From Pseudomonadota bacterium (GTDB lineage: Bacteria; Pseudomonadota; Gammaproteobacteria; Steroidobacterales; Steroidobacteraceae), in contig JAFEDS010000033.1 of NCBI GenBank assembly GCA_018241505.1, positions 26,735-90,734 of the forward strand: a stretch of 64,000 bases of DNA, read 5' to 3'. Below, piece by piece: positions 1-39,700 of the stretch. How positions within the stretch are numbered: the stretch's first letter is position 1; each line of letters opens with the position of its first letter. The notes below the pieces were generated by a model, which was not told the origin of the DNA, did no database searches, and saw only the letters and a program-made list of their open reading frames with translations. The position numbers and the translations under genes are program-made.

Positions 1-569
1 CATCCCTCGAAATACCTGGCAGCGTCTTGTGCCACCTCCGGGCAATTCTCGACCGCAACGCCCAGCTCCTTCACCTGTGTAATCGACTTCCAGTCCATGT
101 TCACGGACCCGAGATAGATGTGCAGGCCGTCAAAAATCCACAGCTTCTGGTGCATGATTCCAGAGCCGCCGTACCAGCTTCCCATGACCACTTCGAACAC
201 TGTGACCGCTTCCGGATATGCCTCCCGCAAAGTGGTCGATTCCGGCTTCGAGCTGCTGGAAAAACCGGGGCTCTCCAGAATGCGTATGCGCACACCACGC
301 GCTGCAGCCTCACGTAAGGCATCGAACAATGCGCGTCCGGCACCAGCGCCCATCTTGACGAACTGCTCATCCTTGAATCCGGACTCATCAACACTCTGCG
401 GATCTGGCAACAACGCCCAGTACATGGCGGTAAGGTCGATGCTGGTCCGCGCCCGCCGCGTGAGTGCTACGAGCACATCTTCCGTATAACGGACACCCGG
501 TGTGCCCCTCAGGTCTTCGAGCCCCTTGGGAATTGATTCGACCAGGTACGCACGGGCCTCGTTTTCCAT
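1..569 (-). CDS. Phospholipase D-family protein, C-terminus outside the window
   Basis: Reading leftward from an ATG at 569, the frame stays open to the window edge (about 189 residues), so the gene is partial at its 3' end. The visible part ends in an HxK(x4)D motif in the context MHQKLWIFDG (plus-strand bases about 130-155), followed by LGSVNMDWKSI. This is the hallmark of one PLD half-site; a second HKD half would be expected beyond the window. No signal peptide is seen at this start. The start lies 4 bp after the stop of the upstream metallo-beta-lactamase-fold gene, so it is the third gene of a leftward operon. Phosphodiester hydrolysis or transfer on lipid or nucleic acid is the family activity; the substrate cannot be told. 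Confidence 0.8.
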   Translation of the reverse strand, partial: MENEARAYLVESIPKGLEDLRGTPGVRYTEDVLVALTRRARTSIDLTAMYWALLPDPQSVDESGFKDEQFVKMGAGAGRALFDALREAAARGVRIRILESPGFSSSSKPESTTLREAYPEAVTVFEVVMGSWYGGSGIMHQKLWIFDGLHIYLGSVNMDWKSITQVKELGVAVENCPEVAQDAARYFEG

Positions 570-573
570 GAGG

Positions 574-1998
574 TCATTCCGGGAAAACGTAATCGATGTA
601 GATCTCGCCCTGCGAAAAATTCGCCGGTAGGCTGTCCAATTCCTGATGCGCTTCGGGGCTTGCCCGCGCGCTACCCGCCGCAATCCAGTCGCTGCGGACC
701 AACTTCCCATTGAGTTGCTTCTCGAGTGCGTCCATGAGCTTGGTGCGCGGCACTTCCGTTCCCTTGGCGATGCTTCCGTAAGTTCGCTTCGCACTCGGAA
801 AGCCCGTCTCGGTCGAACACATCGCCGCGCAGCGCGGGTTCAGCGCCTGCGCCGCAGGTATGGGCGTGGCATTCGTGCTGCCGTGGTGACCCACCTTGTA
901 GAAGTCGATTGAGCCCAGGATGTTCTTAGCGGGCGCGGTAATGCCCGGGGCCTGTCCCATAACCGGCTTGCCGTACAGCCAGTACTCCCAGTTTCCCCAC
1001 TGGGCGTCGCCGACAAACAGAAGCTTCTTGCCCCGACAGGTAAACAGCAACACGAGGCTTTGATTGTTCAGCGTGCCATCGAGTGCGTCCGCAGTGGCCG
1101 CCAGCGCATTGGGTTGCACTTCATGCAGCCGTGCTTCGAATTCCCGTGCAGTGCCGCGCTGGTGGTGTTTTATCTGCTCAGCGGTCTGATAGGGGTAAAA
1201 GACCTCCTTTGGATAGTCGCTGGCGCTTCCCATCCATTTTCCGAACGGGTTCAAATCATTCGCCACCGTGGGGTCTTCCTCGGAGGCAGCGGCCAGATAT
1301 TGCTCCGTCCGGTTGTCGCTGGCCGAATAGGCGCCTTTCGCTGATTTGGGAGGCGGCCCCAACACCTTCACCGTCAAGACATCTTTCAGAGAGTCGGGCA
1401 AGGTCGGATTGTCATCCGCCTCATAGTAGTAAACAGGCGGTTTGTTCTTGAAGCCCTCTGTCAGGAGTTGCAACGCCTTGGCGTTGCCGCCTCCATTGAG
1501 GCCGAGTGCGTTGTGCACCTTGTCGAGCGCCTGTTGCCCTTCGTGGTCGTCGTCCGCGCTCTCCTTCAGTTGCAGCGACAGCCGGTTCGCCAATGAAGTC
1601 ACTTGCTGCCGGAATTTGACTGTGCTGCTGTCCTTCGGGTCCAACCGGTTGGTTATCCAAACAGCACCGACCTCGCACTTCGCGAAGTCGGCATAGTGAG
1701 AGGCGAAGCCGGACAAATGGTCTGCGTGATAATGGGTCGCGACCACGAGCGCAAACTTTCCGCCGGTGGTGCTCATCAGGTCCTTCACACAGTCATCCAT
1801 GCTCCCGATATTCCCGGCATGCACGCCGCAGTCGATGAGAATGTGTTGCGGGCCTGCAGGGGAGGGCACCGTCAGCAAGAAGAAATCCCCGAATCCCACT
1901 CGATACATGCGCACCCGGAGGGAATTCCCGCCCGGATTCTTGCGCCCGGAGCCTGCGGGGGTCTTTGCGGGAGCTCGTTTCTTTTTCGCGCTACTCAT
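574..1998 (-). CDS. ComEC/Rec2-type metallo-beta-lactamase-fold hydrolase
   Basis: This 474-aa protein has the zinc-binding HxHxDH motif (THYHADH, residues 88-94), a later FVGDAQ segment and a KVGHHGS segment, the order seen in the soluble C-terminal hydrolase domain of ComEC/Rec2 and stand-alone relatives. No transmembrane channel part is present, so it is a free hydrolase and not the DNA-uptake channel. Family members cleave phosphodiesters, some of them DNA. The first ~25 residues are a Lys/Arg/Ala/Pro-rich tail (KKKRAPAK...). No signal peptide is visible. The start codon overlaps the stop of the upstream metallopeptidase (ATGA), which implies translational coupling, and a PLD-family gene follows 4 bp downstream. 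Confidence 0.85.
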   Translation of the reverse strand: MSSAKKKRAPAKTPAGSGRKNPGGNSLRVRMYRVGFGDFFLLTVPSPAGPQHILIDCGVHAGNIGSMDDCVKDLMSTTGGKFALVVATHYHADHLSGFASHYADFAKCEVGAVWITNRLDPKDSSTVKFRQQVTSLANRLSLQLKESADDDHEGQQALDKVHNALGLNGGGNAKALQLLTEGFKNKPPVYYYEADDNPTLPDSLKDVLTVKVLGPPPKSAKGAYSASDNRTEQYLAAASEEDPTVANDLNPFGKWMGSASDYPKEVFYPYQTAEQIKHHQRGTAREFEARLHEVQPNALAATADALDGTLNNQSLVLLFTCRGKKLLFVGDAQWGNWEYWLYGKPVMGQAPGITAPAKNILGSIDFYKVGHHGSTNATPIPAAQALNPRCAAMCSTETGFPSAKRTYGSIAKGTEVPRTKLMDALEKQLNGKLVRSDWIAAGSARASPEAHQELDSLPANFSQGEIYIDYVFPE

Positions 1999-3974
1999 GA
2001 AGAGATCCCCATGTGCAGAAGACCGAAGTCCGCCTGGAAATGCTTCGCATCGTCGGTCTTGCCGTTGCCCAGCCCCCTGGCCGCGTAATATTCACGTTGC
2101 CGCGCCTCACGCTGCTTCCCCGATTCCCCGGTCAGCGGCTTCCTGATCGCGAACCGCACATGAGGTTCACTGGCATTGCCGAATTTCACCTTGGGTGACG
2201 AGATGATGAGGGTTACCCCGCCTCTGAAGGGAAAGGTTCCCAGCTCCGGCAAGTCCGGATCGAAGGGCACGAGCTTGGTTTGTACGAGCTCGACCACCAT
2301 GTCGATGCGTAACCTTCCGTCTGCCCCGGTTCGAAATACCGTATGGAAGGACGGCGAGTAGGGCTTGGCATGCTCCGGCAACCCCCGATCACCATCAAAA
2401 CCCAACCTTGCCGCGTTGGCGTCTGCGTACTGCCGCAACACATCGCCGTTGATTTTGCTCTGTTCCAGCGTCGACCCGTTTGGATCGGCAAACACCAGCC
2501 CCGGCACCGGGGGCAGTGCGTCGGGGTCCGGAGGCCTGGGAAGGTGTGGCCAACACAGAGCATCCCTGGAGAAGTAACTGGCGCCCTCCGGAAAAATCCC
2601 ACGCACTCGAAATGCCTGCATCAGGGCATCACAGAATCCCTCATCGTCCCGCGGCATCAGATCCGCCACCACGGTAATCAGTGCGCGCAGATAGTCGCCA
2701 AAGGTGAGATCGACGGGCGGGCAATAGTCCACCGCGCGGGCACAGATCCGGAAGAACTCCGCCGCGGTCCTGGAAGCGGCCTCGGCAACCGACCGGGCTA
2801 ACGGCCCCGGGAGCTCATCTGCGTTCGGATTGCCCCCGCCGGCGCGATAGATGCGGAACAGATCGGAGGTCCGTTGCACGTAGATGGTGAAGTACGCATC
2901 GAACACCGCGGACACCAGGATGGACCCTCGAAAATGCACGTCATTCACGCGCGTGTTGATGTCGTGAGGATTGGCCGGATGGTCCAGGGCGGATCGAAGT
3001 CCCCGATTGATACCCGTCGCTTCGCCAAATTGCTGGGCAAGATCAATCAGGGGATTGCGCTTCCTGACTTCACCCGCCAGCACGGCATCGCTATCCCGAT
3101 CGCGTTTGCTGTCGGCCGCGCCCCCCGAGAGCGGTGCAGCCATGTCGGGCTTCAACTCGAACTGGTAAAGACGGCCGCCGGTCTTTTGAATGGTGTCCAG
3201 CAGCACTTCCGGATGGGAGAAATGGCTGAAGAGTGCGGACAGATCGGCAAACGCTTCATGGAAGGCCAGCACGTCGGGATTCGTGGGCTCCGTAAAGAAG
3301 GCGCGGATGCCATCGATGACTGCGTGCGTGACTTCGTGTGCGATGATGTCATGGGACAGACAAGTAAACACACACTGTCCCGGCAGATTTCGCCCCTGGT
3401 TGTTTTTGTTGGCGGCAAAATAACCAAACAGGATGCCTTTCGCCTCCGAGCTGTAGAAGGCGTTCGCCTGGACCATGGCATGGGGGAACAGGTTCAGGAT
3501 CCAGATGTCATCGCCTTTTTTCCAGGTGTCGGCTTCATCCGGGCCCCCGCCCCGAAAGCGATCCGCCCGATGCCAATGGATCGAGCGCCCGAGGGCCTGC
3601 TCGAATCGCTCAATGGTCTCCATGGCGACCGCGTAAACCATCTGCTGGTGAAACTGCGGGTTGGATTCTGAGGGGTCGAGACCGCCACGAGCGAGGACGC
3701 GATAGTCGTTGAGATCCACCGGCGGGTAGTAGCGCTGCTTGGCGCCATCGTAGTCAATGACCGCGATTTTGCTTCCGCAGGGTCCGGGCTTCAGGTCATC
3801 ATCCCAGGCCACCTCAATGTTCATGATGTTGCCGATGTAGTTTCCGGCGCTCGGATCCAACGCATAGGCTTTCAACGACCTTATGCGCGGTTTCGGAAGT
3901 TTCATCGCAGTTGTGGCGGCTCGTGACGCCGGACGCTTCTTCGTCTTGGTGTTCTTTGGATCGTCCTTGCCCAT
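1995..3974 (-). CDS. Thermolysin-like (gluzincin) zinc metallopeptidase
   Basis: The 659-aa protein carries HEVTH (residues 213-217) and, 23 residues on, HEAFAD, whose Glu240 is placed like the third zinc ligand of thermolysin-type peptidases. Unlike secreted M4 enzymes it shows no signal peptide or obvious pro-domain; it begins with a Lys/Arg-rich tail (KTKKRPASR). The frame is open further upstream to 4190, but the ATG at 3974 has GAAGG seven bases before it and was preferred. It is the first gene of a leftward three-gene operon and overlaps the hydrolase gene by ATGA. The family call is firm; substrate and location are unknown. The long C-terminal half was not recognised. Confidence 0.75.
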   Translation of the reverse strand: MGKDDPKNTKTKKRPASRAATTAMKLPKPRIRSLKAYALDPSAGNYIGNIMNIEVAWDDDLKPGPCGSKIAVIDYDGAKQRYYPPVDLNDYRVLARGGLDPSESNPQFHQQMVYAVAMETIERFEQALGRSIHWHRADRFRGGGPDEADTWKKGDDIWILNLFPHAMVQANAFYSSEAKGILFGYFAANKNNQGRNLPGQCVFTCLSHDIIAHEVTHAVIDGIRAFFTEPTNPDVLAFHEAFADLSALFSHFSHPEVLLDTIQKTGGRLYQFELKPDMAAPLSGGAADSKRDRDSDAVLAGEVRKRNPLIDLAQQFGEATGINRGLRSALDHPANPHDINTRVNDVHFRGSILVSAVFDAYFTIYVQRTSDLFRIYRAGGGNPNADELPGPLARSVAEAASRTAAEFFRICARAVDYCPPVDLTFGDYLRALITVVADLMPRDDEGFCDALMQAFRVRGIFPEGASYFSRDALCWPHLPRPPDPDALPPVPGLVFADPNGSTLEQSKINGDVLRQYADANAARLGFDGDRGLPEHAKPYSPSFHTVFRTGADGRLRIDMVVELVQTKLVPFDPDLPELGTFPFRGGVTLIISSPKVKFGNASEPHVRFAIRKPLTGESGKQREARQREYYAARGLGNGKTDDAKHFQADFGLLHMGISS

Positions 3975-4363
3975 GCGACCGCCTTCGTGAGTTGGAGAGA
4001 TGCCGACTCCACTTTCAGTGGCAGGATTCGAGTGATTATGAAACCCACTATAGCGCGGCGATTTTTCGCTTCGCAATCTCGATAATGCGCCCATCGCTTT
4101 TATCGATTTGCGTCCGACGTGTTGCATCGCGCCACCGACCGAGCCGCATGTAACAACCAACTCGTTAGGAGCCGATAACAACACCGGCACAAAAATTTAT
4201 GGCCGCGGCGATTGCCAAGCCGTAATTTACCGGCGCATACTGATTGTTAGAAGAAGAGCGGTGATTCGCTGCACCACGAGACGGCGAACACGAGGAATGT
4301 GAGGCGGGGGGTAATCATCAGGAAGAGCAGCCGCAATCCACGCTGAGACTCGAGGTGACGATC
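3975..4363. promoter_or_regulatory. Divergent intergenic region between two accessory operons
   Basis: This 389-bp spacer separates the leftward metallopeptidase operon from the rightward dehydrogenase-DNase II operon and must hold both promoters. I see no convincing ORF, tRNA or repeat. A GAGG Shine-Dalgarno element lies at 4352-4355, eight bases before the ATG at 4364. No pair of -35/-10 boxes stands out. Co-regulation of the two operons from here is inference. Confidence 0.45.
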
Positions 4364-5980
4364 ATGGGCCATGGCCGGTCATTCGTCGCAGTGCTCGCAT
4401 CTGCGATCGTCTTGATTTCGTTGACAACATTCCCGACTCCGTCGTCGTCCCAACCGGCAGCGTCTGGGACGACAGCGGCGCCTGCGGCAACTGCGCCGGG
4501 CTTGAAGTGCACGCCCGCCGCGGTGCGCAGTAGCCCCCCCAACCCCGATCCTCTGCAAGGCCAGAAGGATCCGTTCGTGGGAAGCCTGGTTGGCGCAACC
4601 CTTCCTCCCGGAATCCTTCCCATCAGCGACGCCACCCGGCAATCCATCATTGGCGTAGGTATGCCGTGTCAGGAGCAGGTGAGCCCGGGCGGACAGGAAA
4701 AGGTCGGGCTCGACAACCTGCAACGCGGTTTCGATTTCTATTCCTGGCGCACCTTCATTGCCATGAACTCACCTGCCGACGGCACCTCCATTGTGCAGTC
4801 GCAACCTGACACGCCGACCCGCTGGGAAGACATGGACAGCTTCAAGCAATTGCTGGATGTCATGCTGCCAGCCAGCCAGGCGCCCCCCAAATGGCCGGCG
4901 GACCGGGCCGGCATGGAGGCGGAGCGTGAGCGCCTGGTGCCGCAGGAATGCCGCGATCTGCACAAGGCGCAGCCTCACAGCATGATTGTGAAAATGATTG
5001 AGGAAAGCTTCAACGAGCCCTTCAAGACCGGGCCGTTGATTGACCAGCAAGGTCACTACGCCATCTTCGATATCCTGATGAACCGGCAGATGTTCAACTA
5101 CATCCTGTTGAATCATCTGAATACCAAGGCCGGGCAGGCGGCCAATGCCACTCTCGCGGTGGATTTTCCGGCCGGTCAGAATGCGACCAGCGAGCTCGGT
5201 GCCTTCATGCTGAAGGTATCCTGGCGGATCCTCTCGGACAGTGAGATCCAGGCCAAGGACTTCCACATGGTGAAGGCTCTCGTTCTGACCCCGCCCAGCC
5301 CGAAGGGGCGGCAATGTCTGTCCGAAACCTTAGGGCTCGTTGGGTTTCACGCCGTACATAAAACGGCCAGTCGCCCACAGTGGATCTGGACGTCCTTCGA
5401 GCATGTCAGGAACGTGCCGGCCCGGGACGAGGTCACCGCCCATAAGCTCCTCGCTTCCTACAATTTCTTCAGTGCCAACTGCAAGGGCGCTTGTACCGAG
5501 AACGCCACGCCACCCACCCCCTGGGATCCCGATCCGGCCCTGAAATTGAAGTTCCGCGCCGACGACTCGTTCAAGAGCCAGATTGTCCGCGAAACCCCGC
5601 TGACCAATGCGGCGAAGAACATGAACACCGTCTTTCACAGCATGTTGTCCAACACCGTCTGGAAGAACTACATGCTGCTCAGCACACAGTGGCCCAGCGA
5701 GTTCAGTTGCACCAAGTTGCAGTCGACCAGTGCCGCTGCCCCGAGCCCGAAGACTGATTTTATGAAACAACCCGATATGACCTGCTCGCCGGCGCCGACC
5801 TACCTGGCGAATTCCACGCTCGAGACCTATAGCCAGGGAGACATTCCGCTCGCCTCGTCGAGTTGCATTGCCTGTCACAGCAATGCCGTGGGCTTTCAAC
5901 GCAGCGCCTCGAATCCACAGCCGGGCCGGCCGAACCTGAACCAGTCCGATTTCACGTTCATGCTGGAGAAAGCACAGTAG
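4364..5980 (+). CDS. Exported single-CxxCH (cytochrome c-like) protein of dehydrogenase operon
   Basis: The 538-aa product opens with a Sec-type signal (hydrophobic FVAVLASAIVLISL) followed by an Ala/Pro/Ser/Thr-rich stretch, so it should be periplasmic. One heme c attachment motif, CIACH (C501, C504, H505), sits near the C-terminus. Several other Cys are scattered but none forms a second CxxCH, whereas the cytochrome subunits of known three-part FAD dehydrogenases usually carry three hemes. The gene precedes the small subunit by 10 bp, so an electron-acceptor role for the flavoprotein is the natural inference. ATG 4364 was chosen for its GAGG element; GTG 4355 is possible. The ~490 residues before the heme motif match no family I recognise. 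Confidence 0.6.
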   Translation: MGHGRSFVAVLASAIVLISLTTFPTPSSSQPAASGTTAAPAATAPGLKCTPAAVRSSPPNPDPLQGQKDPFVGSLVGATLPPGILPISDATRQSIIGVGMPCQEQVSPGGQEKVGLDNLQRGFDFYSWRTFIAMNSPADGTSIVQSQPDTPTRWEDMDSFKQLLDVMLPASQAPPKWPADRAGMEAERERLVPQECRDLHKAQPHSMIVKMIEESFNEPFKTGPLIDQQGHYAIFDILMNRQMFNYILLNHLNTKAGQAANATLAVDFPAGQNATSELGAFMLKVSWRILSDSEIQAKDFHMVKALVLTPPSPKGRQCLSETLGLVGFHAVHKTASRPQWIWTSFEHVRNVPARDEVTAHKLLASYNFFSANCKGACTENATPPTPWDPDPALKLKFRADDSFKSQIVRETPLTNAAKNMNTVFHSMLSNTVWKNYMLLSTQWPSEFSCTKLQSTSAAAPSPKTDFMKQPDMTCSPAPTYLANSTLETYSQGDIPLASSSCIACHSNAVGFQRSASNPQPGRPNLNQSDFTFMLEKAQ

Positions 5981-5990
5981 GGGAAATTCG

Positions 5991-6695
5991 ATGGATCGAC
6001 CTCGCGAACGCAATCCGCGCGCCACTCAGCCTCTCAACCCGCCACCAACCCTATCGCGTCGTGCCGTGGTCGCCGGAACGGTGGCAACGACGGCAGTGGC
6101 GGCAGTCCTGCCTCTTTCCAACTCCGCCCAGGCGCAGGCGCCTGACCCGCAATCGTCGCAGGACATGATGGCCTTCCTGTTGCTTTCAGAAGCACTGACA
6201 GGAGTGGACAAGCAGATTCTGGCCCCCGAATTCTCAAAGGGCACGGGCGACATCCTGGACGCCGATCCGGGCATCGACCCGATCAATGTCAAGAGCACCT
6301 ATTTCAAATGGCTGGCTGCACACGCGGCGCCCGCCTCGTTTGCCAAGGTGTTGCAGATTGCGAAGGACAACCGCACGGCTCCTGACAAGATCATCGCCGC
6401 AGTCACCGCTGGCGACGACGACACAAAGTTCCTCGGCCGCAGCATTGTCCTGCTGTGGTATCTCGGCTCGTGGTATGACCCGGCCGATCTGAAGAGATTT
6501 GCCACCGCACCGGCGCCGGTCCCCGGACCGATCCCGTCGCAAGTTGTTTCGGCCAAAGCCTACACACAGGGATTGGCCTGGCAGGTCGTGGGCGCGCACC
6601 CGATGGGCTATAGCAATCTGCAGTTTGGGTATTGGTCGCGTGAGCCGAGCGACCCGAATGATCCGAACGACCCCTTCCGCCCCAAGCAGTCCTGA
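5991..6695 (+). CDS. Tat-exported small subunit of membrane-type FAD dehydrogenase
   Basis: This 234-aa protein has a twin-arginine signal (SRRAVVAG followed by an Ala/Val-rich core and an AQA cleavage site near residue 43). The mature part begins with the FLLLSEALTG segment typical of the sorbitol/gluconate/fructose dehydrogenase small subunits (gluconate 2-dehydrogenase subunit 3 type). In that family the small subunit carries the Tat signal and takes the flavin subunit across the membrane with it. GGGGAAAT before the ATG is a good ribosome site. The gene lies between the CxxCH gene and the GMC gene, with 10- and 12-bp gaps. Confidence 0.8.
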   Translation: MDRPRERNPRATQPLNPPPTLSRRAVVAGTVATTAVAAVLPLSNSAQAQAPDPQSSQDMMAFLLLSEALTGVDKQILAPEFSKGTGDILDADPGIDPINVKSTYFKWLAAHAAPASFAKVLQIAKDNRTAPDKIIAAVTAGDDDTKFLGRSIVLLWYLGSWYDPADLKRFATAPAPVPGPIPSQVVSAKAYTQGLAWQVVGAHPMGYSNLQFGYWSREPSDPNDPNDPFRPKQS

Positions 6696-6707
6696 GGGAG
6701 CCGGTGT

Positions 6708-8612
6708 ATGACTGACACTTCCATCCGGTGCGACGTGGCAATCGTCGGCTCCGGATTCGCGGGATCGTTCATTGCCAATGAATTGAGCAAGCAGGGCGTC
6801 AAAGTCGTCATTCTCGAGGCCGGCCCGGGCGTTCAACCGAATTTCAACGCCTTCATGAAGACCTTCTATGAGGCCAATGCCAAGGTTCCGGAAAGCCCTT
6901 ATCCACCCGCGGTTCTCGCCCGGGGCAAGTTGATTGACCCGAAGAATGTGGCCGCGGGCAGGCCATCGGCCCTGACCACCGGCGGCCATAGTTGGAAGGA
7001 TCCGAGCCAGGCCTATCTGGATCAGAGCACGAGCCCGCGTCCGTTCAAAAGCACGTACGAGCGCCTTGCCGGCGGTACCTCCCACTGGATGGGGCTCACG
7101 CCGCGAATGGTCCCGAACGACTTTCGCATGAAAACCGCCTACGGCAAGGGGCAGGCCAACTTTCCGTTGCCCGACTGGCCGATCGACTACCAAACCATCG
7201 AGCCTTTCTACGAAAGGGCGGAAGCGGAGCTTGGTGTGGCTGCCGATGTTGCTGAGCAGCACTTTGCGAATATGACTTTCTCCGCCGGCTATGCGTACCC
7301 CATGCCGAAGATGCCACCGTCGTTGTTTGATCAACGCGTGGCTGCGGCGGTTGCGCATTTGACGGACGATCAGACGCGATTTCTCGGTATGGGCGCTCCC
7401 ATAACGGGTCTGAAGGTGGTCAGCCAACCGGCGGCTCGCAATTCCCAACCGTATCGCAATCGTCGCGCCTGCGCCGGCAATACCAACTGCATTCCCATCT
7501 GCCCCATCCAGGCCAAATACGACCCCACGATTACCCTGAATGAGGCGACCAACAACGGCACGCGCCTGATCGACCACGCCGTCGCCAATGAAATCCTGCT
7601 GCAGAACGATCGCGTCAGCGGCATCAATTTCATCACTTACGGTCACGAGGGCGGGCCGAAGACCGGCAGCGGTCGCCTCGAAGCCACTGTGTATGTCATC
7701 GCCGCCAACGGCATCGAAACGCCGCGGCTGCTGCTCATGTCAAAGAATGGCGGGCGCACACCCAACGGCGTAGCCAACAGCAGCGACATGGTCGGCCGCA
7801 ACCTCATGGACCATCCCCAATACCTGGCGTGGGGACTTCTGCCCAAGCCCGTATTTCCCTACCGCGGTCCCCTCGTGACCTCGTCCATAGGCGAGATCTG
7901 CGACGGTCCCTTCCGCTCCCAGCGCGCCGCCTTTCGGGTCAGCTTGGGCAATGAAGGCTGGAATTCCCTGGTCGGCAGCGGTCAATTCGGCCCGGATCCG
8001 CACGTCACCACGCTCGATCTGGTCAATGGCATGAACTGCAGTGGTCTCAACGGACCGTCGGGCAAGAGCCGTGCGCTGTTCGGTAACGATCTCAAAGGCA
8101 CCCTGAACAATCTGGTCACCCGGCAATTCAGGATTGCATTCCCGGTCGAGCAGAGCCCGGATCCCAACAATCGAGTGACTCTGTCAACTTCCGTGGACGC
8201 ATTGAACCTGCCTCGCCCAAAGATCAACTACGACATTTCCGAGTACACCCGCAGAGGGGTGGCCATCGCCTTTCAAATGAAGAACCTGATTTTCAAACAG
8301 CTTCAGGCAGTTGACTTCACGGCGCGCGCTCCCGGTGATCCCGCGGGTTTTGACGAGACGATTGAGGGTAAACAGGTCCAACTGACTTATGGTGGCGCCG
8401 GTCACGTCATGGGCACGTATCGCATGGGCCTCGATTCGAAGACATCCGTCGTCGATGCCTGGCAGCGCTCGCATGATCACCCCAACCTGTACCTGGTCGG
8501 AAGCGGAACATTTCCGACAGTAGGTACCTCGAATCCAACCCTCACGTTAACAGCCCTGGCCCTGCGGACGGTGCAGGACATCGTCCTGAAGCTCCGGGTG
8601 GTCAAATCATGA
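6708..8612 (+). CDS. GMC-family FAD oxidoreductase with [3Fe-4S]-type cysteine motif
   Basis: A 634-aa flavoprotein. The N-terminal GSGFAGS is the FAD-binding Rossmann loop; GHVMGTYRMG and TSNPTLT near the end are the GMC C-terminal active-site segments. Residues 255-265 read C-x5-C-x3-C-P, which matches the iron-sulphur ligand pattern of bacterial FAD glucose and fructose dehydrogenases. No export signal of its own is present, fitting Tat co-export with the preceding subunit. Its probable reaction is oxidation of a sugar, polyol or other alcohol, passing electrons to the CxxCH partner or quinone; the substrate is unknown. The stop overlaps the next gene's ATG. Confidence 0.85.
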   Translation: MTDTSIRCDVAIVGSGFAGSFIANELSKQGVKVVILEAGPGVQPNFNAFMKTFYEANAKVPESPYPPAVLARGKLIDPKNVAAGRPSALTTGGHSWKDPSQAYLDQSTSPRPFKSTYERLAGGTSHWMGLTPRMVPNDFRMKTAYGKGQANFPLPDWPIDYQTIEPFYERAEAELGVAADVAEQHFANMTFSAGYAYPMPKMPPSLFDQRVAAAVAHLTDDQTRFLGMGAPITGLKVVSQPAARNSQPYRNRRACAGNTNCIPICPIQAKYDPTITLNEATNNGTRLIDHAVANEILLQNDRVSGINFITYGHEGGPKTGSGRLEATVYVIAANGIETPRLLLMSKNGGRTPNGVANSSDMVGRNLMDHPQYLAWGLLPKPVFPYRGPLVTSSIGEICDGPFRSQRAAFRVSLGNEGWNSLVGSGQFGPDPHVTTLDLVNGMNCSGLNGPSGKSRALFGNDLKGTLNNLVTRQFRIAFPVEQSPDPNNRVTLSTSVDALNLPRPKINYDISEYTRRGVAIAFQMKNLIFKQLQAVDFTARAPGDPAGFDETIEGKQVQLTYGGAGHVMGTYRMGLDSKTSVVDAWQRSHDHPNLYLVGSGTFPTVGTSNPTLTLTALALRTVQDIVLKLRVVKS

Positions 8613-9883
8613 CAGTCTCCGCGCTCGACGAACGAGGCCAGCCGGTCGATTGGTTCTTCATCTACAAAGTCCCGCAACTCGCGGCGGGTGCCAACACCGA
8701 TATGACCACGGGCTACGAGTACGTTTACTACGACTCGCGCATTGATGAGCAGAAAACGGCGAACAAACGCAATATTGACAAGTCACCTTTCGTATTGAAC
8801 AGCGAGCAGGGCGCGCTCAATGAGACGCTCAATGCAGTGTTTGACAATCCAGAGGACACGACGGGTTGGATTCTCTATAACGACGAGAAGCCGGGAGATG
8901 TCACTGGCAAGGACAACGGCGCTCTTGGCCATACCAAGGGCGTGCTGGCCTTCGATACGAAGACCAAGACCGGCTATTGGCTGCTGCATTCCTGGCCGAA
9001 ATTTGCGGAGCCGAAAGCCAAAGGCGATCCGACACCCAAGTTTGGGCAGACCTATCTGTGTCTGTCCCTGACGTTCGACACCTTGGAGAAGATTGCCGCG
9101 CAGATGATCGACCGCCAACAGCCCCAGACCTATCTCAATCGAGTCGATTGCCTCGCCAACAACAAGGCCAGTCCTCTCTACAAGCTCTCGCAGACCATCA
9201 ATCCGAATGCCGTCGGCGCTTCCGGCACGCTTGACCTGAAGACCGCGGGCGGAATGGCATTCAAGGTGATTGCCAAGAACCGTTTGTGGAACCAGGACTT
9301 CTGGAACGGACTCGTAGGTCCCACTCTCGGTGACGACATGGACGTCGACACCTGGATACGAGGCGCGGTACCGCCGGTGGCCGACACCGACGGTGTCCAC
9401 AAGACCTTCGACATCAAGTACATCAACCTGGGCCCCCTGGGCATCCACATGGCGTGGCCCGAAACACACGACCACGCGAAGTGGGGTATCACCACCCATT
9501 CGAACTGGATCTGCGTCGGGGACATCAATCGCATGATTTCGCAGCGCAAGCGCGGCGGCGGCACCATTGCATTTCAAAACCAAACGCTGTGGCAGGGCCT
9601 GTCAAAAACCGACCTCCTGCTGGCGCCCCCAGGCCTGACGCGCGACAACGCCCGCGGTCTCATCCACTCCACCCACTTCGACCCGCACGACCAACTCGGC
9701 TCCTCCCCGCAACCCAAGATCCACTCGATGTCACACCTGCCCCCGCGCACCGGCGTGCCTTTCCGCGGCAAACCCATGCCGCTCGACCCGGACCCAGCTC
9801 AGCCGACCCGGCCACTGAGCCCGCGTGCTAATCGTTCGCGCCCGAAGAAGAGCGCCAAAAAGAGCTCGACCAGGAAAAAGTAG
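8609..9883 (+). CDS. Deoxyribonuclease II-family protein
   Basis: The 424-aa product resembles animal lysosomal DNase II along its length: an opening DERGQPVDWFFIYKVP block, GHTKGVL, then LLHSWPKF (His127), FGQTYLCLS, DHAKW (His289, Lys291) and CVGDINR followed by RGGGT. The last two are the conserved C-terminal HxK active-site region. DNase II cuts double-stranded DNA without metal, leaving 3' phosphates, and prefers acid pH. No signal peptide is visible, which is unusual for the family. The C-terminus is a Pro/Arg/Lys/Ser-rich tail (RPKKSAKKSSTRKK). The ATG overlaps the GMC stop, so it is coupled to the dehydrogenase operon. Family call from memory of conserved motifs; activity not proven. 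Confidence 0.85.
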   Translation: MTVSALDERGQPVDWFFIYKVPQLAAGANTDMTTGYEYVYYDSRIDEQKTANKRNIDKSPFVLNSEQGALNETLNAVFDNPEDTTGWILYNDEKPGDVTGKDNGALGHTKGVLAFDTKTKTGYWLLHSWPKFAEPKAKGDPTPKFGQTYLCLSLTFDTLEKIAAQMIDRQQPQTYLNRVDCLANNKASPLYKLSQTINPNAVGASGTLDLKTAGGMAFKVIAKNRLWNQDFWNGLVGPTLGDDMDVDTWIRGAVPPVADTDGVHKTFDIKYINLGPLGIHMAWPETHDHAKWGITTHSNWICVGDINRMISQRKRGGGTIAFQNQTLWQGLSKTDLLLAPPGLTRDNARGLIHSTHFDPHDQLGSSPQPKIHSMSHLPPRTGVPFRGKPMPLDPDPAQPTRPLSPRANRSRPKKSAKKSSTRKK

Positions 9884-9927
9884 CCGGCAGACTGATTCAG
9901 TTGTGAGCCGCACATCCTTGTGCACAC

Positions 9928-10353
9928 CTATTGCGGCACCCGCGTAACCTGCGCATACGTAGCCTTCCAACCCCCATCCCTCTTAGCCCAAACATACGCA
10001 ACCCGCAGCACCCGCGTCTGATGCTTCCCATCCTGCGTCCAGCTCAAATGCACGAGCCCACCAATCACCGCCCCGTCACCCCAAACTTTCCGCACCGGCT
10101 GTTCGATCACGTAAGGATCAATCTTGAATCCCGGCAGGTTGAAGTCAGCGAGGAACTGCTGTTTGTTTTCCACAGTGCCGTTCGAATTCACCAGCACATA
10201 GTCGTCGGCGACGAGCCGCTCGAGAGTCGGAATGTCGTTGCTGAACTGCGCCTGATCGTAGGCGTGAGCTGCATTCACCAGATCGGCCGGCAGCTCCACT
10301 GCGTGCGCCGGCGTCGCTGCGCTCAGTACGAGTATTGTGGCGGCAAGTTTCAT
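9928..10353 (-). CDS. Exported NTF2-like (SnoaL/DUF4440-type) protein
   Basis: From the ATG at 10353 this is a 141-aa protein with a short signal peptide (MKLAATILVLSAATPAHA). The mature part has the NTF2-like pattern: an early DIPTLERLVADDYVLVNSNGT segment, then VWGDGAVIGG and a closing GGWKATYAQVTRV. Such domains bind or convert small molecules, but many have no known role. The frame is open 11 codons further to 10386; the signal peptide decided the start. It faces the DNase II gene tail to tail over 44 bp and shows no operon partner. Confidence 0.65.
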   Translation of the reverse strand: MKLAATILVLSAATPAHAVELPADLVNAAHAYDQAQFSNDIPTLERLVADDYVLVNSNGTVENKQQFLADFNLPGFKIDPYVIEQPVRKVWGDGAVIGGLVHLSWTQDGKHQTRVLRVAYVWAKRDGGWKATYAQVTRVPQ

Positions 10354-10500
10354 GTTGGTTGGCCCTGAACCTGTAACCGCCGGCAACAGTGCACAAACTG
10401 AAGCCAGTCACAAAAGAGCCAATCCAGCCGAAGTCACATCACCACTTCGAAAGAACTTTTCGATTCGTAGTGCGCCGCGGCGGGCGGCGAGGCGAGTCCC

Positions 10501-11145
10501 TCACCGCCGCTGAAACGCATCCAACGAAGCCAAACTCTTCCTCCCCCCCGTGGACGAAAACTGCTCCGCCGCCCCATCCGCCGCCTGCGCCTCCAACGAA
10601 ACCGCCTCGGCCTCCGCCAGACACTTCAACCCGTCCTCCGACAGCTTGAAATACCACTGCGTCCCCCAAGGCACCGGCGCACTATAAGGCGCCCGCGACA
10701 AACTCAACTTCGACAGATCAACCTGGATGGCCTTCCCATCCGCGCCAATCCCAAAATTGCCACCTTTCCCCGTCTCAACAGACGCAGTTGACCCGGGCTC
10801 CTGGCTCAACGGCTGCAGATTCAACTCCTGCCCGTTGCACTTCACGCGCGGCTGTGTCAGTTGCCCCTGCGCCTGCGGCGTCGACACCCACAGGAACAAC
10901 TCCCGGCTTCCCATCCTGTTGGTCTCAAACGGCGCAATATATGCAAACGGATCCGTCTGCTTCGCCCGCGAATTCTGTGAAAACAGCTCAACCGGCTGAC
11001 TGAGCACGGTGATCGTGGTAGCCGTATCCGGATCCAGCTTCTCAGCCACCGGCTCCGTGACCGGCATGGAGGCACACCCAGCCATCACCACCGCGACTAG
11101 TCCAGCGCCCGCGAGACCCTTCAATTTGTTCATTCCCATCCCCAT
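10501..11145 (-). CDS. Putative lipoprotein of unknown function
   Basis: The product (about 214 aa) starts with a lipoprotein signal: MNKLKG, a hydrophobic GLAGAGLVAVVMAG core and Cys in an AGC context. The mature part has no family I recognise. It is rich in Gln/Ser/Thr in the middle and Ala/Glu near the end, with an LSEDGLKCLAEAEA segment. Start choice is open between ATGs at 11145 and 11133; upstream frame to 11325 is unlikely coding. The gene is divergent from the L,D-transpeptidase gene across about 180 bp. Confidence 0.55.
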   Translation of the reverse strand: MGMGMNKLKGLAGAGLVAVVMAGCASMPVTEPVAEKLDPDTATTITVLSQPVELFSQNSRAKQTDPFAYIAPFETNRMGSRELFLWVSTPQAQGQLTQPRVKCNGQELNLQPLSQEPGSTASVETGKGGNFGIGADGKAIQVDLSKLSLSRAPYSAPVPWGTQWYFKLSEDGLKCLAEAEAVSLEAQAADGAAEQFSSTGGRKSLASLDAFQRR

Positions 11146-36700: not shown

Positions 36701-39700
36701 GCGAAGGTATCGTTGGCTCCGCCGGGCACGCCGCTAGCGCTGCCCCCGCTGCTGGCGCAGACGCCGACCACGGCGCTTCTGACCATGATGCCTCCGCATC
36801 CGCTGACCGCGCTGCCCATGGTGTCGGTGCCCACGGTGCTTCTGACCATGATGCCTCCGCAGCCGCCGACCCCGCTGCTCATGGTGCCGGTGCCCACGGC
36901 GCTGCTGACTATGGCGGCGCTGATGCTGCCCACGCGGCTCCAACTCACGGTGATGCGGCCCATGGTGCTGCGGCTCGCGGCGATGCGCTCCACGGTACCG
37001 CTGGTGCCGCCGCGGCTGCCGCTGCTTCGAATGTCAGCGCTGCTGACCATGGTGCCGCCGCGGCCGCTGGCCGTGCCGCTCACGAAGCTGCAACTCACGG
37101 TGATGGGACGCTCGGCTCCACTGGTGCCGCCACCCATGGCGCCCCCGGCGACGCCCATGCCCCAGTCGCCCACAGCGCTGTCGACCACCGTGTCGCTGAC
37201 CACGGCGCCCAGGTCGAAGATCCAGTAGCCGCGCAGTCCGGCCCCGATGATGTCCTACGTGACATCTACTCCCGCGAAACGGCGAACCATGTCGCGACCG
37301 TGCGCGCCTACCTCGACCGCGAGGAAGGCATGCCGGAGGCACATGCCATTCCCGAAGAAGTTTACCGAGCCTGCCACACGCTGTCGGGCAGCTCGAAAAT
37401 GGCTCAGGCGCGCCACGGCATCCGCCTCGCCGAGCCGCTCGATCATTGGTTGCGCCGCGTATTCAACAGCGGCCTGGGACTCCTGAATCAGGATCTACAC
37501 CTGTTGTCCGATTGCATGATGGCCATGGAAGCCGTCGTCACGCATCTGGACGAAGTGACAGGTTATTTCCAGAACCACCAGGTCCTGATGGATCGCATTG
37601 CCCAGGCCGAGAAAGTCCTCGACCAACGCATTGCGCAGGCGTCTGAAGAGCAGGCCGACACGTCTGTGTCGGGCGAAGAGGACGAGCTGTCCGAGGACGC
37701 CGGTGATTTCGATCCTGAAGTGGCATCGATCTTCTGCGAAGAAGCGATGGAGCTCATTGAGGTCTGCGAAAGCGCGCTGGCCGAATGGCGATTGGAGCCC
37801 AGCAGTGCCGATTACCGATCGGCCCTCAAGCGTCCGCTACACACATTGAAGGGTGGCGCCCGCATGGCGGGCATCACGGCGATGGGCGACTTGTCACACG
37901 AGTTGGAAACGCTCGTCATGCAGGTCGACAACGGTTCCGTTCCCATCACAGACGCCGTGTTTGATGTCATCCAGGCGAGTCTGGATGAGTTGGCCCGGAT
38001 GCGCGAGGCTGTTGCGAATGGCCGGCGCGTTTCTTCCGCGCGGCAAATGATCGCGCGCATTCACGCTTTGTCGAAGCCCGGCAGTGCCGCTGCTGCTCCT
38101 CCCGCGGCAGCCGCTCCGACCGCCAAACCGGTAGCACCTAAGGGTGAGCTGTTCAGACGCGCCAGCAATCAACCAACGGCAGCACCCCCAGCCCCACAGT
38201 CCTTTGCTCCGCCGCCACCCGCGCTGACACCGGCGGAGCAGGAAACGGCAGCGGCTGACGACGAGTCCGAAGTTGCGGACGACGGCCCCGCTGGTGTCGA
38301 GCTGCGCTTCGATGACCCCGAGGCTGCTGCCGACTTCGAGGCCGCACGCGCTGAAATAGCCGCCGCTGATAGCGAAGCCGCCGCCGCGGAAGCTGACTTG
38401 CACGGCACGGATCTGCCCCCCGACGCCGAAACCCAACTCAACCGTGCACTGCCTCCGCAGCCGTCACTGCCCGACACACTCGTCGCGCAGATGCCCGATT
38501 TCGAGCCCGTACAAACCGCCGAGCCCGCTCCCGAATTTGACACGGCCGCCACTTCTGAGCCCACGAGCGGCGATCTTGCCGCCGAGCTGCTCGCCAGTTA
38601 TCCGACGACGGAACAATCAGGCGAAGTGCAGGTTGCCGGTGAGACCGACTCCGGCAGCTACGATTTGAGCGGAAGCGAGCTCGCTGACCTGACCAACGAT
38701 CTCTCAGCGTCCTTCGCTGACCGCGGCGCCGGCGATGGGCACGGCGAACGCGAAGCCAGCGGTGACCATGCCGCCGACGCTGAGCACGCAGCCGACGGCC
38801 AGGACGCACCTGACGGCCAGCACGCTGCCGACCGCCACGTTGCAACCGACTACATGACAGCCCGCGATTCCGCGGCGAACGAGGAAGTCAGCCCCGTTCA
38901 GTCGTGGACTCCCGAGTCAACGCAGGAAACCCCGAACCTCGGCGACATCGATTCCGGCCGCAGTGGCTTCTCTGCATTCGCGCAAGAAACTCCGCTGTCG
39001 GAGGATCAACCTGCTTCCTCCGAGCCAGCAGTAGCGTCCTTCGAGTCATCCGACGGCAGCACTCACGACGCCGCAGAATCGCTGCTTGGAAACTGGGCGA
39101 ACCCCGGTGGCGGAGAGCCCGCGCCAATCTGGCCAGCCGAAGCCGAGCCCGCACCACACGAGGGACATGCGACCGACGAAGCGTCCGCTTCCGAGCGCGA
39201 GTCCGGCACCGCGCATGACGGTGCATTTACTCCCGAGCACTCAGAGTTTGATGCTGCGGCAGCATCGGCTGAAGCCGAGCACGGGGCTCCCGAAGCATAC
39301 GCATCGCTCGAGGCGTACGCGCCCGAGGCCCATGGGCTGCCGCATACCCAACAGGCTGCCGCCGCATCGCAAGCAGCAGACAGCCCGTCAGCGTATGACC
39401 GGTCAGCACACGACCAGTCAGCGAGCGAACGGTCAACGCATGAGCAGTCGACGCCCGAGCAGTCTGCGAGCGCCCACGCGCATCAGCAGCCAGCGCACGA
39501 CCGCCCAGCGAGCGAACAGTCAGCGTATGACCAGCCAGACACGCAGCAGTCATCAGCGCCGACACCCGCCGGCGCTACCACCGCAGCCAAGTCCGTCTCG
39601 GCCAATCTGACCCGCGGCGACTCCAAGAGCGAAGATGGCTTGGTAGCTCCCCAGGCCGTGCCGCCAGGCCGCGACCCCGTCGCTCCCGCCGAACGGCAGG

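What the first reader, a model, noticed from the sequence alone, without database searches (positions are those of the whole stretch)
8609..9883. A eukaryote-type DNase II gene translationally coupled to a bacterial dehydrogenase operon
The protein keeps the DNase II landmarks (GHTKGVL, LLHSWPKF, DHAKW with His289 and Lys291, CVGDINR plus RGGGT). DNase II is known mainly from animal lysosomes and is sporadic in bacteria. Here its ATG lies inside the stop of a GMC flavoprotein gene, so the two are made together. No signal peptide is visible, and a Lys/Arg/Ser tail ends the protein. What a metal-independent acid nuclease does with a sugar-type dehydrogenase (local acidification by aldonic acids is one idea) is undescribed to my knowledge.
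Basis: partly seen in the sequence, partly recalled or inferred. Interest (0 to 1): 0.78.

Follow-up and report, generated by a model that had tools for sequence, protein, structure and literature searches.

The report
Bacterial DNase II on mobile island
A bacterium carries a gene for a known kind of DNA-cutting enzyme, DNase II, on a stretch of imported DNA; it overlaps a sugar-dehydrogenase gene, but that pairing was not seen in any relative checked, and the more telling neighbours are a set of other breakdown enzymes that resemble immune genes of bacteria.

Summary
Window 8609-9883 encodes a 424-residue DNase II (PF03265, 254 bits) with both HxK pairs (H108/K110, H289/K291), no signal-like N-terminus and a basic tail. 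Its ATG overlaps the GMC stop (ATGA).

The closest solved relative is the bacterial Burkholderia thailandensis enzyme (57% identical).

The wider setting is more informative. The gene lies on a 26-kb island missing from four of four congeners compared. GMC belongs to a three-gene, apparently exported dehydrogenase complex. Six genes (that complex plus PLD, M4-like peptidase and MBL genes) also sit together on a conjugative Bradyrhizobium plasmid, without DNase II. Peptidase-MBL pairs were adjacent in 8 of 8 fetched plasmid loci, several among defence genes, and an nSTAND1 NTPase gene follows the PLD gene here.

I read DNase II as a nuclease added recently to a mobile multi-hydrolase cassette, possibly a conflict effector; its place behind GMC is probably incidental. 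Identity, island and cassette sharing are shown; activity and conflict role are inferred.

The parts
8609..9883 (+). DNase II (PF03265), 424 aa, no signal-like N-terminus, K/R-rich tail
8930..8938 (+). first HxK (H108-T-K110)
   Evidence: invariant in the 9 aligned sequences
9473..9481 (+). second HxK (H289-A-K291)
   Evidence: invariant in the 9 aligned sequences
8609..8612 (+). ATGA start/stop overlap between GMC and DNase II
6708..8612 (+). GMC oxidoreductase, nearest solved relatives glucose and fructose dehydrogenase large subunits
5991..6695 (+). small (gamma) subunit, FAD-SLDH family, twin-arginine-like N-terminus (SRRA)
4355..5980 (+). CYT541: 541-aa protein with a hydrophobic N-terminus and one CxxCH motif; probably the electron-transfer partner (inference)
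1995..4190 (-). M4-like metallopeptidase (HEVTH...HEAFAD); the true start is probably near 3977 (inference from the Bradyrhizobium homologue)
   Evidence: no Pfam hit, no PDB profile hit
574..1998 (-). MBL-fold hydrolase (HYHADH, GHHG), weakly similar to LmuA, Avs1a and RTasMBL
1..557 (-). PLD-like protein, cut by the window edge (whole gene about contig C26 25891-27291); 68% identical to the Bradyrhizobium plasmid copy
9928..10386 (-). DUF4440 gene, inside the island
1..10512 (.). right part of a 26.2-kb island (contig C26 about 11070-37246) absent from the four congeners compared

Best explanation
The gene encodes a genuine bacterial-lineage DNase II, by family a phosphodiesterase that needs no metal and uses two HxK pairs. 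It was acquired on a 26-kb island as an extra gene at the end of an exported dehydrogenase operon. That operon is itself part of a mobile cassette with a PLD-like protein, an M4-like peptidase and an MBL hydrolase. DNase II is probably made together with GMC by ATGA coupling but works apart from it. It most likely stays in the cytosol and degrades DNA as one of several hydrolytic effectors of a conflict (defence or self-killing) locus that may be governed by the neighbouring nSTAND1 NTPase. Shown here: family, catalytic residues, overlap, island, cassette sharing and lack of the GMC link at the loci checked. Inferred: activity, cytosolic location, conflict role, control by nSTAND1.
For: Family and fold. 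Island absent in 4 of 4 congeners compared. Six-gene set shared with a conjugative Bradyrhizobium plasmid: CYT541 67%, gamma 60%, GMC 66%, PLD 68%, M4-like 55%, MBL 55-57%. That PLD is rare: besides its own source, the 5 other plasmid records matched are at 24% identity, and besides this genome the 11 other matches in 219 class genomes are weak, E 2.5e-12 at best. nSTAND1 NTPase about 0.6 kb downstream of the PLD gene on the same strand: (PF20703, 90.8 bits). Peptidase and MBL genes adjacent in 8 of 8 plasmid loci fetched (not a random draw); of the 7 annotated, 3 have clear defence genes (TIR and SIR2; CBASS cyclase and DarT; McrC) and 3 suggestive ones. MBL resembles LmuA (57.6 bits) and Avs1a (29.7 bits). 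No signal-like N-terminus.
Against: The six-gene set was seen in only two places and DNase II with it in one, so co-inheritance rather than function may join them. No relative of the nSTAND1 protein was found on the Bradyrhizobium plasmid (annotation). An exported dehydrogenase is an odd member of a cytosolic immune locus, and its three genes also occur alone. DNase II is described as most active near pH 5 (passages), a poor fit to cytosol. PADLOC has no hit for DNase II, gamma, CYT541 or the peptidase, and only low-scoring hits for MBL, PLD and nSTAND1. One of the seven annotated peptidase-MBL loci has no defence-like neighbour. By eye, several other DNase II loci lie beside ordinary metabolic or hypothetical genes.
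Confidence: 0.5

Rival explanations
1. DNase II is a scavenging or biofilm DNase that leaves the cell by lysis or an unknown route and feeds on DNA; its neighbours are accidental island cargo.
For: DNase II loci elsewhere have very different neighbours, as expected of a free-standing gene; the island also carries unrelated genes (Asn-synthase/transglutaminase pair, FecR, sigma factor).
Against: No signal-like N-terminus; the gene sits inside a tight operon; two DNase II loci share neighbours (Desulfobulbus and B. pyrrocinia).
Confidence: 0.22
2. One reading: the dehydrogenase makes aldonic acid, and the acid activates the coupled DNase II outside the cytoplasm.
For: ATGA overlap; the GMC protein is close to glucose and fructose dehydrogenases, and its partner subunits look exported; DNase II is described as an acid enzyme (passages).
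Against: No GMC gene at 10 of 10 other DNase II loci with flanks; no DNase II at the four GMC-complex loci inspected; DNase II lacks a signal-like N-terminus.
Confidence: 0.1
3. A recent passenger without a role, expressed by read-through and on its way to loss.
For: Not found in the other genomes sampled from the order, island absent from four congeners; a DNase II copy in another genome of the class (G034) matches in pieces with stops.
Against: The reading frame is intact and the residues invariant in the alignment are kept.
Confidence: 0.13

Closest known systems
Burkholderia thailandensis E264 DNase II (PDB 5i3e, 5unb)
   Same: 57% identical over about 357 residues, both HxK pairs in the alignment
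   Different: the window protein has 67 residues beyond the aligned part, ending in a K/R-rich tail; the genome neighbourhood of the B. thailandensis gene was not checked
Animal lysosomal DNase II
   Same: Pfam family PF03265; HxK motifs (animal ones recalled)
   Different: animal enzymes are secretory glycoproteins of the lysosome (recalled); this one has no signal-like N-terminus
Bradyrhizobium quebecense plasmid pBq66S1MBa cassette
   Same: six genes shared at 55-68% identity
   Different: all six in one direction, no DNase II, no nSTAND1 relative; CHAT, patatin and S8 genes upstream
FAD-dependent glucose and fructose dehydrogenase complexes
   Same: GMC large subunit and an FAD-SLDH-type small subunit
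   Different: third protein CYT541 has a single CxxCH; the known complexes use a multi-haem subunit (recalled)
Avs1 and Lamassu MBL-type defence systems
   Same: MBL hydrolase with a protease and an NTPase as a theme (system make-up recalled); MBL weakly hits LmuA and Avs1a
   Different: peptidase is M4-like, NTPase is nSTAND1, scores far below family level for Avs1a, only a 15-bit Avs4 hit for the NTPase

Membership tests
DNase II (PF03265) | match to the family profile over nearly its full length | tested here: met
   254.4 bits, profile positions 3-318 of 326
DNase II (PF03265) | two HxK catalytic pairs | tested here: met
   H108/K110 and H289/K291
DNase II (PF03265) | DNase II fold | tested here: met
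   AlphaFold model of modest confidence (mean pLDDT 59.5, pTM 0.68) has 5i3e as top match, E 2.5e-36, rmsd 7.8; the 57% sequence identity carries most of the weight
DNase II (PF03265) | metal-independent acid nuclease activity | not testable with these tools
   needs an assay
   0 of 10 DNase II loci with flanks; 0 of 4 GMC-complex loci inspected carry DNase II
Avs1 (AVAST type 1) | Avs1a-type MBL at family-level score | tested here: not met
   36.4 bits against a cut-off of 420; 29.7 bits in PADLOC
Avs1 (AVAST type 1) | Avs-type STAND protein | tested here: not met
   only Avs4 at 15.2 bits; Pfam says nSTAND1
Lamassu (MBL type) | LmuA effector | tested here: inconclusive
   57.6 bits over residues 26-379, no curated cut-off given
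Lamassu (MBL type) | LmuB SMC-like protein beside LmuA (recalled) | tested here: inconclusive
   none of the neighbours scanned with PADLOC gave it; not every ORF was scanned
FAD-dependent sugar dehydrogenase complex | GMC large subunit with an FAD-SLDH small subunit | tested here: met
   the FAD-SLDH match covers only profile positions 1-53 of 163

The most novel reading that the evidence does not exclude
The island holds an undescribed immune or self-killing locus in which an nSTAND1 NTPase, an M4-like peptidase, an MBL hydrolase, a PLD-family protein and an exported redox complex act together, and which has recruited an animal-lysosome-type nuclease, DNase II, as an additional DNA-degrading effector, perhaps switched on when the dying cell acidifies.
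Probability: 0.2. Interest if true: 0.68.

Novelty: new member of a known kind. Interest (0 to 1): 0.38.

Why it matters
Bacterial DNase II has a solved structure, but no paper on its role in bacteria turned up in my searches (a library of open-licence papers only). If the hydrolase cassette is a conflict system, DNase II would gain a role in bacteria parallel to its DNA-clearing role in animal immunity. The cassette itself, shared by this island and a conjugative plasmid, is a concrete lead for defence-system screens. If it is only cargo, the case warns against reading function from one ATGA overlap.

Tried and rejected
GMC-DNase II as a conserved pair: rejected on neighbourhoods. DNase II as replacement of the cassette's PLD gene: proposed, rejected, which found the PLD gene running out of the window's left edge. 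Contaminant contig (genome contamination 5.67%): rejected, because DNA on both sides of the island aligns with four congeners and PpnN is 77-89% identical in the congeners with a full-length match. R-body link (RebB genes near the B. pyrrocinia copy): rejected as general, since RebB was found in 2 of 10 genomes or records searched, the Desulfobulbus one not being held, and in one of the two it lies on a separate 4.5-kb contig. Phage origin: no match in 50,697 phage records or in viral contigs (which reaches close relatives only). Survey of the PLD gene in one family: 0 of 228 genomes, an empty answer without a positive control. PDB profile search for the M4-like peptidase: nothing. P0005 and P0002 in viral contigs: nothing. 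CYT541 in the phylum: 12 of 299 genomes, this one included; the three best others were fetched with flanks, and in one of them, G1255, no GMC match lies near. In one search the line for P0001 was computed on a gapped alignment row and is replaced; may have used the same gapped row as query, but their coordinates came out ungapped (1-424 on the window).
Full report
What is there. The 424-residue ORF at 8609-9883 (+) is as described. Its ATG overlaps the GMC stop as ATGA. In L006 and L003 the first in-frame start codon falls at the same column, as does the RefSeq start in B. pyrrocinia; L002 and L004 have an earlier in-frame start. Pfam gives DNase_II at 254.4 bits. phmmer and Foldseek both give the B. 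thailandensis 'putative deoxyribonuclease-2' (5i3e, 5unb) first, at 57% identity. The model behind the fold search is of modest confidence (mean pLDDT 59.5, pTM 0.68, 7 sequences; rmsd 7.8), so the sequence match carries the argument. H108/K110 and H289/K291 are present and invariant in the nine aligned sequences. There is no hydrophobic N-terminus, and the last 40 residues carry 13 K/R.

How rare. PF03265 rings in 1 of 296 genomes sampled from the order, this one only. In the class it rings in 4 of 369, this one included; one of the other three matches in pieces with stops and two score 46 and 59 bits. It rings in 2 of 392 genomes of Undibacterium's family, Undibacterium included. One of 72,556 plasmid records has it, and none of 50,697 phage records. 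The scan of genome contigs with the single protein, which reaches close relatives only, gave 6 loci, in records titled Melioribacter, Acidobacteriota, Undibacterium, Burkholderiales, Pedosphaera and Desulfobulbus. Sporadic presence under such different titles fits horizontal spread (inference; several are metagenome bins).

The GMC link. tblastn of the GMC protein over all fetched loci longer than 4 kb found no GMC gene at any of 10 other DNase II loci (L002, L003, L004, L006, L007, L013, L026-L029). Of these ten, L027 and L028 hold remote relatives found by profile only and L029 a broken copy. L005 was left out because it has 32 bases upstream; an earlier search of it found no GMC either. By eye, several of these loci have ordinary or hypothetical neighbours (whose output was cut). 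Two, Desulfobulbus (L007) and B. pyrrocinia (L013), share two further genes beside DNase II; the larger in B. pyrrocinia has a PNP_UDP_1 domain. The limit of this test: from the GMC side I inspected flanks of only a few relatives (2 of the 571 plasmid records with a match), though the only plasmid record with DNase II, B. pyrrocinia, has no GMC gene within 9 kb.

What the GMC gene belongs to. It is the large subunit of a three-gene complex: CYT541 (one CxxCH, hydrophobic N-terminus), a gamma subunit with a Tat-like SRRA stretch, and GMC. The GMC protein is closest among solved structures to glucose and fructose dehydrogenases. Eight further GMC relatives in the order (38-39% identity), fetched with flanks, have no CYT541, and one of them has a gamma gene (a ninth, L075, is a 4.1-kb contig).

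The cassette. A conjugative plasmid of Bradyrhizobium quebecense has CYT541-gamma-GMC-PLD-M4-MBL in one direction. All six have counterparts here at 55-68% identity: CYT541, gamma and GMC on the plus strand; M4-like, MBL and PLD divergently on the minus strand, the PLD gene running out of the window's left edge. I first took DNase II for a stand-in for the PLD gene; finding the PLD gene itself ruled that out, so DNase II is an addition. About 0.6 kb past the PLD gene, on the same strand, is a 1095-aa nSTAND1 NTPase gene (PF20703, 90.8 bits); no relative of it was found on the Bradyrhizobium plasmid. nSTAND1 was named as a STAND clade seen in conflict systems (one passage of PMC8195603). Of the 58 plasmid records matching the peptidase and the 34 matching the MBL, I fetched 8, chosen for varied hosts and not at random. 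In 8 of 8 the peptidase and MBL genes are adjacent, and in 0 of 8 is there a match to GMC, CYT541, this PLD or DNase II. In three of them the peptidase match lies in a protein labelled S8 family serine peptidase. Three of the seven annotated ones have plain defence genes (TIR and SIR2; CBASS cyclase and DarT; McrC), three have suggestive ones (patatin with ThiF; Mov34/MPN; caspase), and one has none. The eighth is unannotated. The name M4 rests on HEVTH...HEAFAD and the RefSeq label of the Bradyrhizobium copy; Pfam and a PDB profile search gave nothing.

The island. In four congeners (G661, G577, G684, G682) DNA matching the gene left of the island (by eye a LysM/lytic-transglycosylase-like protein, contig C26 8483-11083) is followed closely by DNA that here lies right of it. 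In the closest, G661, 13 bases separate the two alignments, which end at contig 11069 and resume at 37247 (window 10513). In the other three the alignment resumes at 38159-38293, after 273, 354 and 987 bases. So about 26.2 kb, contig 11070-37246, is an insertion here relative to these four. It carries a transglutaminase-like/Asn-synthase pair, FecR and sigma genes and by eye a TonB receptor, then nSTAND1, PLD, MBL, M4-like, the dehydrogenase complex, DNase II and a DUF4440 gene. A TraD-like coupling protein, MobA and an integrase lie further left on the contig. G+C does not set the island apart.

Reading. DNase II is a known kind of enzyme in a new place. Translation coupling with GMC is plausible but looks like the last gene to land at the end of an operon. 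The company it keeps, hydrolases without signal-like N-termini beside an nSTAND1 NTPase, and relatives of that peptidase-MBL pair among defence genes, makes a conflict effector the likeliest role, at about even odds. Against it stand the small number of cassettes seen, the weak PADLOC scores, and the acid optimum given for DNase II (passages of PMC11799398 and PMC11430429).

Literature. Seen as search listings; searches without a hit: 23, 25, 76, 115. Seen as passages: PMC11799398, PMC10783504, PMC8195603, PMC11430429. The 2003 'family history' paper and the 2017 acid DNase structure paper were seen only as references; the latter is not held. I found no paper in these searches that links DNase II with GMC or with this cassette.

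Noticed in passing
L014 (B. pyrrocinia plasmid NZ_CP091309.1) 10716-14251: Four RebB R-body genes, a sigma factor and a Crp/Fnr regulator lie close to a gene row of tyrosinase, DNase II, PNP-domain protein, metallophosphoesterase and ferritin-like protein.
   Followed up: partly
L007 3739-7943 and L013 10131-13852: Desulfobulbus and B. pyrrocinia share two further genes beside DNase II (33.7% over 486 aa and 28.4% over 282 aa), a possible second DNase II gene set.
   Followed up: partly
L030 4999-8286 (contig C26 21998-25285, -): 1095-aa nSTAND1 NTPase with a 182-aa membrane-like protein after it, left of the window.
   Followed up: partly
L076 11478-15636 and L030 to 2367 (same island): Transglutaminase-like and asparagine-synthase genes with FecR, sigma factor and, by eye, a TonB receptor: looks like a lasso-peptide cluster (inference).
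   Followed up: partly
L076 756-7438 (contig C26): TraD-like coupling protein, MobA/MobL relaxase and three tandem tyrosine recombinases (one tested with Pfam, two by eye) near the contig's left end.
   Followed up: partly
G034:C1 790015-790987 (L008, L011, L012): A DNase II copy of this genome matches in pieces with stops inside; it looks like a decayed gene.
   Followed up: no
L058 8201-17923 (Bradyrhizobium plasmid): Upstream of the six-gene cassette: S8 peptidase, patatin, DUF2252, a second PLD protein (DrmC/MkoB-like), a hypothetical protein and two CHAT proteins.
   Followed up: partly
whole genome G000: 7.9 Mb with 5.67% contamination, larger than every congener listed (1.8-6.9 Mb).
   Followed up: partly
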